A stretch of DNA of 64,000 nucleotides, from contig CAMESG010000002.1 in NCBI GenBank assembly GCA_945936135.1, positions 62,001-126,000 of the forward strand, written 5' to 3'. This document shows positions 42,094-44,879 of the stretch, piece by piece; within the stretch, counting starts at the first letter, position 1, and the number at the start of each line of letters is the position of its first letter. This DNA comes from an uncultured Mollicutes bacterium (GTDB lineage Bacteria > Bacillota_I > Bacilli_A > RFN20 > CAG-826). The translations under genes were made by a program, and so were the position numbers. Under the pieces are notes generated by a model. The model saw nothing but the letters and a program-made list of their open reading frames with translations. It ran no database searches and was not told where the DNA came from.

Positions 42094-42600
42094 TTAGAAT
42101 TTGATTTCCTGAAGAAGCGTTTGATCGTCCAAACGATATAGTCCGATTCCTCGCTCCGTGATCCAGGCGTAGCTCGCCGAAGAATCGCGTGGATAGGCGA
42201 TCGATCCTGGGTTTAGATAAATCACGCCCATTTCCTCATAGAGGGTTTTCACATGGGTATGACCGGTGAAAACGAGATCGCCTTCAGGAAAGGCGCTCCA
42301 AATTGGCCGATGCCCTAAATGAGCGGAGCGCCCAAATATGGAGATGTCTCGGCGATCTGGTAAGGAAACGCCTAGCAAGCGTTCATCTTCTTCGCGATCG
42401 CAATTCCCACGAACCGCAATGATCTTATCGGAATACTTTTTTAATTCCCGCGCGCACGCAAAGCCTCCGCCTTCGTAGCCGCCATTCAAGATATCGCCCA
42501 AAAGAATAATGCGATCTGGTGGATCTTGCGCCCAAATGGAAAGAACTTTTCGAAGCGAAGAAATTGAGCCGTGCAAATCGGAAAAGACGAAGATTTTCAT
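42094..42600 (-). CDS. YfcE-type metallophosphoesterase
   Basis: 168 residues from ATG at 42600. A calcineurin-like fold is shown by SDLHGS (Asp8, His10), ILLGDILNGG, VRGNCDREEDE and FTGHTHV, the metal ligands of YfcE/MJ0936-like phosphodiesterases. Members hydrolyse phosphodiesters in vitro; the natural substrate is unknown. A longer frame up to 42720 is rejected because TATAAT sits at 42608-42613, only 7 nt before the chosen ATG. It stands alone between the metal-exporter regulator and the tnpB element. Confidence 0.85.
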   Translation of the reverse strand: MKIFVFSDLHGSISSLRKVLSIWAQDPPDRIILLGDILNGGYEGGGFACARELKKYSDKIIAVRGNCDREEDERLLGVSLPDRRDISIFGRSAHLGHRPIWSAFPEGDLVFTGHTHVKTLYEEMGVIYLNPGSIAYPRDSSASYAWITERGIGLYRLDDQTLLQEIKF

Positions 42601-42607
42601 CGCTTTG

Positions 42608-42613
42608 ATTATA
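42608..42613 (-). promoter_or_regulatory. -10 element of the yfcE-like gene
   Basis: Perfect TATAAT on the minus strand, 7 nt before the ATG at 42600, no Shine-Dalgarno site between; predicted leaderless. Confidence 0.5.
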
Positions 42614-42738
42614 GCGTTTTCCGTGAGGGCATAGGAAAGTTCGGCACCCGAAAATATTTTTGACCAAAAAATTTTCAAAAATTTTTCTTCGATCCCATCG
42701 ATGTTTTTCGACTTCTCCATTGGGAAAATGGCCGAAAA

Positions 42739-43994
42739 ACGTGGTGATTCGCCACGTATAGTAGAGGGAGGTTAAAATGATCGCTCACAAAATCCGCATC
42801 TATCCGAACAAGGCCTTTCGCGAGCTATTCAGCGAGCAGTTTGAATACGCTCGAAGAGATTACAATCGCCAACTCGACATGTTGGTCAAGGGTATCAAGT
42901 CTCAACAGATCACGCCCTACAATCTCGACGCATCGTTAAAGAAGATTTGGTCTTATTGCCTTAAACACGCGGATTTCTTCCATAAGGATTCATATCATTT
43001 CCCAGATATCATCCGGTGGAATTCGAAACGGCTTTCGATGTTGGCTCCAAAGTTGTTAAACGGTGGCGTGGAACCGCATTTCAAAGCCCTCGGCGTGGGG
43101 AAACAAGCATTCAAGATGTGCGCGGCACCTCTTGATGAGCATCGCTACCTCGTGACACAAGGCAAGCGACTGATCATCAAAGGTTTCGGGTCCATTACTC
43201 TGGCGGAAGAAACCCGTTTCCATTCTTTCCCAATCTCCATTGAATTCGTTCTCCACAACAATCGCTACTACGCCTGCTTCCTATTCAAGGAAAACCATCC
43301 CGTTTATCTAGAGACGGGGCGGAGGGTTGGACTGGATGTCGGTATTTCTACCTTCGTCGTTGCCTCAGAGGAAAACGGCCCGACACGCCGTTTCGACTTA
43401 AAAATGGGGAAACGCGACGCCATCGCCAAGAAGATCAACAAGTACACGAGTTTGTTGTCTTGTAAAGTCAACGAACACAAGACGAGTCACCCATCTTCGA
43501 AGCGGTACGCAAAAACGCTCAAACGCCTTCGCGATGCCTACCATAGGCACAGCAACTTAAAGAAGAACTTTATTGAGCAAACCTGCCACGTCATTGCGAG
43601 AGACTACGATTTCATAGGCGTCGAAAATCTCTCCATGACCCGCATGTTGCAAAAACGAAGCGTGGCACGTTGGTACATCCATAAACCATACGCTGCTTTC
43701 TTGAGTCGGCTTATCGTAAAAGCGCGAGAAGCGGGGAAACACGTCCAGGAAGTCGCCAGAAACTTCCCTTCTAGCCAGCTATGCCATGAATGCGGCAAGA
43801 AGTCGAGCATCACGAAGAATCTCTCGATACGGGCCTGGACGTGTCCCCATTGCGGCGCCCATCTGGATCGCGATGAAAACGCGGCCAAAAACATTCTTCG
43901 ACAAACACTTCTTGATGCGCACCTCACATAAAGAAGTTGTTCTTGGGGGCGAGGAACGCCCATTATATAACGCGGGAGAAGCAACCCTAGCTTC
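42739..43994 (+). mobile_element. IS200/IS605-like element carrying only tnpB
   Basis: A left-end hairpin ACGTGG-TGATTCG-CCACGT (42739-42757) lies just upstream of tnpB, and a right-side hairpin GAAGC-AACCCTA-GCTTC (43978-43994) lies downstream within CGCG flanks. A second hairpin GGGCG-AGGAA-CGCCC is at 43947-43961. Subterminal hairpins and no terminal inverted repeats suit this family. No tnpA is present, so it cannot move alone. The exact ends are not fixed; the right end could lie beyond 44117. Confidence 0.55.
42777..43931 (+). CDS. tnpB: TnpB RNA-guided nuclease-like protein (IS605 OrfB)
   Basis: 384 residues, full length for TnpB. The RuvC-type catalytic residues are all present: Asp187 in GLDVGIS, Glu283 in GVENLS and Asp366 in DRDENAAKN. 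The zinc ribbon has CHECG (336-340) and CPHCG (356-360). TnpB proteins are RNA-guided DNA nucleases that use an RNA from the 3' end of the element. GAGGGAGG lies 7 nt before the ATG with TATAGT upstream. The intact frame suggests recent arrival or continued selection; no tnpA accompanies it. It separates the yfcE-like gene from nusG. Confidence 0.95.
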   Translation: MIAHKIRIYPNKAFRELFSEQFEYARRDYNRQLDMLVKGIKSQQITPYNLDASLKKIWSYCLKHADFFHKDSYHFPDIIRWNSKRLSMLAPKLLNGGVEPHFKALGVGKQAFKMCAAPLDEHRYLVTQGKRLIIKGFGSITLAEETRFHSFPISIEFVLHNNRYYACFLFKENHPVYLETGRRVGLDVGISTFVVASEENGPTRRFDLKMGKRDAIAKKINKYTSLLSCKVNEHKTSHPSSKRYAKTLKRLRDAYHRHSNLKKNFIEQTCHVIARDYDFIGVENLSMTRMLQKRSVARWYIHKPYAAFLSRLIVKAREAGKHVQEVARNFPSSQLCHECGKKSSITKNLSIRAWTCPHCGAHLDRDENAAKNILRQTLLDAHLT

Positions 43995-44016
43995 GACGAT
44001 CGCGTTGAGGAAGGAA

Positions 44017-44117
44017 GGTGACGTAGTCATCCTTCATTCCATTCCGGATGACATAGTTTGTACTCTTCGAGTCCAAACATACGTCACCGTAGCACGTCCC
44101 ACCGGAACGTTTGCTAC
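44017..44117. other. Gene-free stretch with nested inverted repeats, RNA-like three-way junction
   Basis: This lies in the 348-bp gap between tnpB and the next gene. A 9-bp perfect stem, GGTGACGTA (44017-44025) with TACGTCACC (44080-44088), encloses GTCATCC/GGATGAC (44026-44032 with 44046-44052) and GTTTG/CAAAC (44056-44060 with 44074-44078), the latter continued by ACTC/GAGT. A fourth stem-loop follows, GTAGC-ACGT/ACGT-GCTAC (44089-44117). Further hairpins GCTCG-AAAA-CGAGC (44159-44172) and an imperfect one at 44219-44243 follow. It could be part of the tnpB guide RNA/right end or an independent RNA. Confidence 0.5.
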
Positions 44118-44244
44118 CATCAAAAATCGTTCTCACCTTTGCGTTTGGACGAAAAACCGCTCGAAAACGAGCAATTCGATTCATCATCTTTGCAAAACGC
44201 CATTCTTTCCATTGAAAAACAAACGCAAAAATCTTGCGGTTTGC

Positions 44245-44273
44245 TTGGAAGAAAGTCAGGAAACGTCTATAGT
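44245..44273 (+). promoter_or_regulatory. Promoter of the unknown gene at 44.3 kb
   Basis: TTGGAA (44245-44250), 17-nt spacer and TATAGT (44268-44273), ending 6 nt before the ATG at 44280. Predicted leaderless. Confidence 0.55.
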
Positions 44274-44279
44274 AAAGCC

Positions 44280-44879
44280 ATGAATAGCGCTCCTATGTTT
44301 TACGAAGACTTGCGGGATTGGTTTCTCTATACCGCAAGAAGTTGGCTCCATCTTGATTTGGCTTCCGCCACCATGGATGAAGCGAACGAAATCTGCGGCG
44401 CAGCCGCCTTCCTCTTTGGCCATCTCTTTTTGGCCGAAGACGTCGGTCCTTCGATCACACGCCTCGTGAAGGCGGATCTTGGACCCCATTATTCATCGGA
44501 GCGCCTAAGCGGCCTTGCGACGAAGATGAGGCTTGCCATGACCGGAGATGACTTCTCCCTTGGCACTTCTCCTCTTCGCGAATACATCAAATGGGTCAAG
44601 CCCTCCGCGCCGACCGTGGAATACGCTTTCACGGATAACGCCGGCAAGCTCGTCTTAGTGACCGCCGAAGAATTCGTAAATCTCTTTTTACGCGAAAACG
44701 ATGCCCAGCACGCGCCGCTTCACGTATCGGAAATCGTCTTCTTGACGCTTACGGATCTCTTCGCCAATTACTACATCCGTTCGCAAGGGAATGACAACTT
44801 CCGCGCCTTCCGAAGCTATCCTTACTTCGAATCCATTTCAGAAGAAATGAAACGAATCCGTTCGGAAAGCATCGAATGA
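44280..44879 (+). CDS. Unknown 199-residue protein
   Basis: Soluble, mostly helical by composition, no signal or membrane segment. Recognisable neither as enzyme nor regulator. Residues 1-70 are rich in aromatic and Ala residues (FYEDLRDWFLYTARSW), the middle has several Thr/Glu/Phe clusters, and the C-terminus is charged. ATG at 44280 is preferred to an earlier in-frame start at 44058 because the promoter TTGGAA/TATAGT ends 6 nt before it. It sits alone on the plus strand, convergent with nusG, and may have arrived with, or been separated by, the neighbouring tnpB element. Confidence 0.6.
   Translation: MNSAPMFYEDLRDWFLYTARSWLHLDLASATMDEANEICGAAAFLFGHLFLAEDVGPSITRLVKADLGPHYSSERLSGLATKMRLAMTGDDFSLGTSPLREYIKWVKPSAPTVEYAFTDNAGKLVLVTAEEFVNLFLRENDAQHAPLHVSEIVFLTLTDLFANYYIRSQGNDNFRAFRSYPYFESISEEMKRIRSESIE

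What the first reader, a model, noticed from the sequence alone, without database searches (positions are those of the whole stretch)
44017..44243. Dense inverted-repeat, RNA-like structure downstream of tnpB
A 9-bp perfect outer stem encloses two further stems and is followed at once by another stem-loop, all within 101 bp (44017-44117); two more hairpins follow up to 44243. No gene lies here. The arrangement looks like a folded RNA (three-way junction plus 3' hairpin). Its position fits the RE/guide-RNA scaffold of the tnpB element, but it begins about 20 bp after the apparent right-end hairpin, so it could be an independent small RNA.
Basis: partly seen in the sequence, partly recalled or inferred. 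Interest (0 to 1): 0.65.

Follow-up and report, generated by a model that had tools for sequence, protein, structure and literature searches.

The report
Resident TnpB with self-masked guide RNA
The folded sequence is the guide-RNA end of a single, vertically inherited, transposon-derived TnpB gene; in two related rumen bacteria the presumed guide is followed by an inverted copy that should hide it, while a third relative has lost catalytic residues of its TnpB instead.

Summary
The hairpins are real: 44017-44117 folds at -41 kcal/mol, z -7.3, 0/200 shuffles. They do not form an independent small RNA. They are the 3' half of the tnpB omega-RNA, its guide and a guide-complementary tail. tnpB (42777-43931) is single-copy. 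Its only clear orthologs (60% and 38% identical) sit at the same locus in two of the 30 other genus genomes searched; 22 others have the flanking genes without it. NusG groups the three carriers (100/99), so it looks domesticated. All three share a 99-nt scaffold (stem 1, stem 2/3, stem 4, pseudoknot strand ATTCC) with the order of the solved ISDra2 omega-RNA; 7 pairs are compensated on both sides. The guide therefore starts near 44047. That sequence pairs with guide and scaffold beyond chance in G000 (4/1000) and G007 (0/1000), with partly different letters, but not in G012 (682/1000), whose RuvC has lost D and E. Best explanation: a resident TnpB RNP whose guide is masked in cis where the nuclease looks intact. 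Masking and its purpose are inferred; only three sequences exist; no target was found.

The parts
42777..43931 (+). tnpB, 384 aa; RuvC motifs GLDVG / GVENLS / DRDENAA intact by alignment to ISDra2 TnpB D191/E278/D361
   Evidence: Pfam OrfB_IS605, Cas12f1-like_TNB and HTH_OrfB_IS605; NCBIfam guided_TnpB; PDB alignment to 8bf8; catalytic residues from PMC10097598; single copy in genome
43947..43961 (+). omega-RNA stem 1, GGGCG-AGGAA-CGCCC; its loop GGAA is the 5' strand of the proposed pseudoknot
   Evidence: 5-bp helix never varies in three orthologs
   Evidence: 5 pairs with compensatory double changes among three orthologs
44009..44040 (+). omega-RNA stem 4 (subterminal hairpin): GGAA-g-GAAGGTGAC-gta-GTCAtCCTTC-a-TTCC
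   Evidence: lowest-energy fold of the transcript up to the end of the guide; GGAA/TTCC is GGC/GCC in G012; 2 double-change pairs
44041..44046 (+). pseudoknot strand ATTCC plus one nucleotide; end of scaffold
   Evidence: ATTCC invariant and aligned in all three orthologs; complementary to the stem 1 loop GGAA; same GGAA/UUC pairing and position as in ISDra2; no covariation because invariant
44047..44062 (+). proposed 16-nt guide GATGACATAGTTTGTA
   Evidence: placed by homology to the ISDra2 omega-RNA and by the drop in conservation among orthologs; boundary uncertain by 1-2 nt, experimentally untested
   Evidence: interaction with scaffold+guide beyond shuffles in G000 (4/1000) and G007 (0/1000), not in G012 (682/1000); local alignment of guide with the inverted tail
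   Evidence: z -7.28; homologous junction in G007, z -5.2; absent in G012, z +0.57
44245..44273 (+). promoter-like site TTGGAA-17-TATAGT of the downstream gene, its ATG at 44280 (probably leaderless)
   Evidence: consensus scan; same TTGGAA-17-TATAGT arrangement in G007 (sequence)
44280..44879 (+). conserved gene of unknown function flanking the insertion
   Evidence: homologs in 27 of 31 genus genomes; no Pfam or NCBIfam family
42094..42720 (-). phosphoesterase gene on the other side of the insertion
   Evidence: Pfam Metallophos_2; adjacent to the downstream gene without tnpB in 22 other genus genomes

Best explanation
The stretch is the non-coding 3' end of a domesticated TnpB locus. The tnpB transcript runs into a 99-nt omega-RNA scaffold (43947-44045) of the ISDra2 type, followed by a guide starting at about 44047. 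Immediately after the guide lies a tail that is an imperfect inverted copy of it. In G000 and G007, where RuvC looks intact, this should keep a resident nuclease from using its guide, unless the tail is removed by RNase or trimming, or TnpB binds the scaffold before the tail is made. In G012 the tail is missing and RuvC has lost its first Asp and its Glu, so that copy could only bind DNA, as TldR proteins do. Shown: structure, ortholog conservation, fixed locus, compensatory changes, excess complementarity of the tail. Inferred: transcription, guide position, masking inside the cell, and its purpose.
For: Single copy with same-locus orthologs in G007 and G012 only. Carriers are one clade by NusG, 100/99. 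Flanking genes adjacent without tnpB in 22 genus members. Scaffold found once per genome and only in the three carriers at high score, 83-87 bits. 28-pair scaffold with pseudoknot: 95% of cells paired, 7 double-change pairs, 1/500 shuffles; slid versions have at most 2. All three orthologs align at ATTCC. ISDra2 precedent for stem order and the GGAA/UUC pseudoknot. Subterminal hairpin within 10 nt of the scaffold end in nearly all orthologs surveyed (PMC10278001). Tail interaction: G000 z -3.3, G007 z -5.3, G012 +0.7; 1 of 21 mobile TnpB controls below -3. Predicted unpaired probability of the guide with tail 0.22 and 0.04, against 0.63 in G012. RuvC D->T and E->D in G012.
Against: Only three sequences, and the link between masking and intact RuvC rests on three. 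The pseudoknot is invariant, so not supported by covariation. The inner part of stem 4 differs between species and is weak in G012. One of 21 controls (L091) also reaches z -3.2. No expression data. No target was found for the guide in the own genome, so a DNA-guided function is unproven. Energy models ignore bound TnpB, which could keep the guide free.
Confidence: 0.5

Rival explanations
1. Ordinary omega-RNA scaffold and guide of a TnpB that is merely immobilised; the downstream complementarity is incidental or has a structural role such as 3' end protection or transcript ending.
For: The scaffold matches known omega-RNAs. A stable 3' hairpin could protect RNA ends. One mobile control shows similar complementarity (L091).
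Against: Complementarity of the tail is beyond shuffles in two species with partly different letters, and guide plus tail together form the stem. No run of T follows the junction, and the terminator scan lists no site there.
Confidence: 0.3
2. Independent structured small RNA or cis-regulatory element of the downstream gene that happens to lie after tnpB.
For: Very stable fold; 27 nt identical between G000 and G007; closely precedes the promoter of a conserved gene in G007.
Against: Occurs only with this tnpB. Its 5' half is the scaffold end shared by all three orthologs. The promoter-like site of the downstream gene lies after it, so it is not in that gene's leader. No Rfam match.
Confidence: 0.1
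3. TldR-like RNA-guided repressor in all three species: DNA binding without cleavage, the guide aimed at a chromosomal promoter.
For: The G012 copy lacks two RuvC residues while keeping ORF and scaffold; fixed chromosomal locus as in TldRs (PMC13418256).
Against: G000 and G007 keep all three catalytic residues. The G000 guide has no second genomic match with up to 3 mismatches in 16 nt except one with 3, fewer than the control pattern gave.
Confidence: 0.1

Closest known systems
ISDra2 TnpB omega-RNA (PMC10097598)
   Same: Stem 1 with a GGAA loop motif, stem 2/3, stem 4, a UUC pseudoknot strand just before the guide, scaffold of about 100-116 nt overlapping or following the tnpB 3' end.
   Different: Here stem 1 is a compact 5-bp hairpin, the element is not mobile (no transposase gene beside it, single locus), and a guide-complementary tail follows the guide in two of three species.
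TldR, TnpB-like nuclease-dead repressors (PMC13418256 and refs therein)
   Same: Domesticated TnpB at a fixed chromosomal place; the G012 ortholog has lost RuvC residues but keeps scaffold and ORF.
   Different: G000 and G007 keep the RuvC triad. No linkage to fliC, csrA or opp genes. No target found.
Self-inhibition of AmaTnpB by its own mRNA (PMC10278001)
   Same: An RNA segment of the same transcript is thought to inhibit TnpB by base pairing with the omega-RNA.
   Different: There the segment lies inside the tnpB coding sequence and is proposed to disrupt the scaffold; here it follows the guide and pairs with guide and stem 4.

Membership tests
TnpB (RNA-guided nuclease of IS200/IS605 type) | OrfB_IS605 / TNB domains and homology to solved TnpB | tested here: met
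TnpB (RNA-guided nuclease of IS200/IS605 type) | RuvC D/E/D triad | tested here: met
   met for G000 and G007; G012 has T and D in place of D191 and E278
Mobile IS200/IS605-type element | several copies or different sites, or a partner transposase | tested here: not met
   one copy in the genome, same locus in all three carriers; no transposase among the ORFs around it
omega-RNA of TnpB | structured scaffold at the 3' end of tnpB with subterminal stem and pseudoknot before the guide | tested here: met
   compensatory changes in stems 2-4; pseudoknot complementary but invariant
omega-RNA of TnpB | binds TnpB and guides it to DNA | not testable with these tools
   needs RIP-seq and cleavage or ChIP assays
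TldR | RuvC catalytic residues lost | tested here: not met
   not met for the window's protein; met only for the G012 ortholog
TldR | guide matches a host promoter or gene | tested here: not met
   no convincing second match of the G000 guide in its genome; the revised guides of G007 and G012 were not searched in their whole genomes
Rfam-described RNA families | match at the gathering score | tested here: not met
   only a tRNA in the window

The most novel reading that the evidence does not exclude
A resident TnpB lineage disarmed in two ways: by a guide-masking tail where the nuclease looks intact, and by loss of RuvC residues where the guide is free. The masked form would be a switchable RNA-guided nuclease, released by tail removal, with mutually exclusive stem 4/pseudoknot and three-way-junction folds acting as the switch.
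Probability: 0.25. Interest if true: 0.78.

Novelty: new variant of a known kind. Interest (0 to 1): 0.58.

Why it matters
TnpB is the ancestor of Cas12, and how hosts tame it is an open question; known cases inactivate the nuclease (TldR). A lineage that keeps RuvC but masks the guide in cis would be a second route, with a natural off-switch that can be tested directly by deleting the tail. The three orthologs at one locus, one of them apparently catalytically dead, make a compact natural comparison.

Tried and rejected
A first guess put the scaffold end at GAGGAA (44012) with the guide at 44013. Searches with that guide in G000 and G007, and its equivalent in G012, gave only matches inside coding sequence with 2-3 mismatches. 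The guess was dropped when all three orthologs proved to align to ATTCC and to fit the ISDra2 order. Copies of the 27-nt hairpin elsewhere: none in G000 or G007 with up to 3 mismatches; its 17-nt core gives only scattered 2-mismatch hits in the genus. Phage and plasmid DNA similarity: none. Viral contigs: no match to the hairpin or the first-guess guide; revised guides gave 1, 0 and 5 exact 17-nt matches, not beyond what I would expect by chance in so large a collection, and their host range was not examined. Free-standing scaffolds elsewhere in 224 family genomes: none at high score. The tree of the downstream gene alone did not resolve the carriers; NusG did.

Full report
Observation. The two later hairpins (44159-44172, 44224-44238) exist but have no counterpart in the nearest ortholog.

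The gene. tnpB at 42777-43931 encodes 384 aa with OrfB_IS605 and TNB domains and aligns with ISDra2 TnpB through the RuvC motifs. The genome holds one copy. Among 31 genus genomes and 224 family genomes only G007 (60% identity) and G012 (38%) hold clear orthologs; the next best matches are far weaker (E 1e-40 against 1e-206). A scan of the GTDB-220 collection gave two loci, on contigs of the same lengths as the G007 and G012 contigs and so almost certainly the same two genomes; the records are JAQYPI010000014.1 (Bacillales bacterium SUG2074) and ONGB01000005.1 (uncultured Erysipelotrichaceae RUG275). That these are rumen genomes is my reading of the isolate prefixes SUG and RUG, not a tool result.

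One locus, one insertion. In all three carriers tnpB sits between a phosphoesterase gene and a conserved gene of unknown function next to nusG. In 22 other genus members those two genes are present in the same fetched stretch without tnpB. NusG groups the three carriers with support 100/99; the tree of the unknown gene leaves them unresolved. This indicates a single insertion followed by vertical inheritance, that is, domestication or at least long residence. G007 keeps the RuvC residues; G012 reads GVTVG for GLDVG and IGIDD for the Glu motif, and keeps the last Asp. By the ISDra2 catalytic residues D191, E278 and D361 (PMC10097598) the G012 copy should be nuclease-dead.

The scaffold. Downstream of the stop codon the three orthologs share stem 1 (GGGCG[A/G]GGAACGCCC), stem 2/3 and the motif GAGG. 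Stem 2/3 alone has five double-change pairs. Folding growing prefixes of the transcript shows a further hairpin, stem 4, at 44009-44040, closed by GGAA/TTCC in G000 and G007 and by GGC/GCC in G012. Directly after it ATTCC is invariant and all three sequences align there. In the solved ISDra2 omega-RNA a UUC strand just after stem 4 pairs with GAA near stem 1 to form the pseudoknot that precedes the guide; here TTCC can pair with the GGAA loop of stem 1 in the same order. Counted together, 28 pairs are 95% standard, with seven double-change pairs, 1/500 shuffles reaching that, and at most two in slid versions. The pseudoknot pairs never vary, so they are supported by position and precedent, not by covariation. 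A model of stems 1-3 finds the scaffold only in the three carriers at high score (83-87 bits), once each.

The guide and the tail. By homology the guide begins at about 44047 (GATGACATAGTTTGTA). In G000 and G007 the sequence after the guide is an imperfect inverted copy of it and of part of stem 4. With scaffold and guide held fixed and only the tail shuffled, the interaction energy is -12.9 (4/1000 shuffles as strong) in G000 and -20.1 (0/1000) in G007, but -2.0 (682/1000) in G012. Of 21 mobile TnpB loci treated the same way one reaches z -3.2 (L091), and there the guide is no less accessible with the tail than without it. Predicted unpaired probability of guide nucleotides 1-16 with the tail is 0.22 (G000), 0.04 (G007) and 0.63 (G012) (the script stopped at a final summary line, after all these rows were printed). 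Total-energy tests agree. In G000 the prefix through 44091 still prefers stem 4, with the guide paired to the tail, and the full stretch prefers the junction; so the two folds compete, and in both the guide is largely buried.

Reading. The most economical account is a resident TnpB RNP whose guide is masked in cis in the two species with an intact RuvC, while the third species has a free guide and a dead RuvC. Masking is inferred from thermodynamics on two sequences; the contrast with G012 rests on three. It is not excluded that the tail serves 3' end stability, or that bound TnpB keeps the guide open. No second target for the guide was found in the own genome, which fits a guide that is not in use or one aimed at foreign DNA; the viral-contig matches found do not exceed what chance would give by my estimate.

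Known systems. TldR proteins are domesticated, nuclease-dead TnpBs acting as RNA-guided repressors (PMC13418256); only the G012 ortholog meets the nuclease-dead criterion, and no target is known. Self-inhibition of AmaTnpB by its own mRNA has been reported (PMC10278001), but through a coding-region segment. I found no description of a guide-complementary tail in the papers searched; the search covers open-licence papers only.

Noticed in passing
L155 (G017:C73:3383-3434): GGGGCGAGGAACGCCC followed by ACGTCCGAG lies upstream of an rpsL-type ribosomal gene in a genus member without this tnpB; weak model match (23.9 bits, E 0.047), possibly a decayed scaffold or chance.
   Followed up: partly
window 44245-44282: The gene at 44280 has a TTGGAA-17-TATAGT promoter-like site ending 6 bases before its ATG, with a similar arrangement in G007, which suggests a leaderless mRNA.
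   Followed up: no
L003 2769-2820: In G012 the guide-equivalent sequence runs straight into the promoter region of the downstream gene, as if the original element end abutted it; transcription of the omega-RNA there could interfere with that promoter.
   Followed up: no
window 44138-44147 and 44220-44229: A perfect 10-bp inverted repeat (TTTGCGTTTG/CAAACGCAAA) 72 bases apart, upstream of the promoter of the next gene and absent in G007.
   Followed up: no
window 42743-42763: Inverted repeat CGTGG-TGATTCG-CCACG overlaps or abuts the putative -10 (TATAGT) of tnpB; a similar GGTG-TTTCGCC arrangement precedes TATAGT in G007, a possible operator.
   Followed up: no
L091: A mobile TnpB of another genus whose RE flank also shows strong complementarity to the tested scaffold-end and guide stretch (z -3.2 to -4.0), the only one of the controls to do so.
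   Followed up: no
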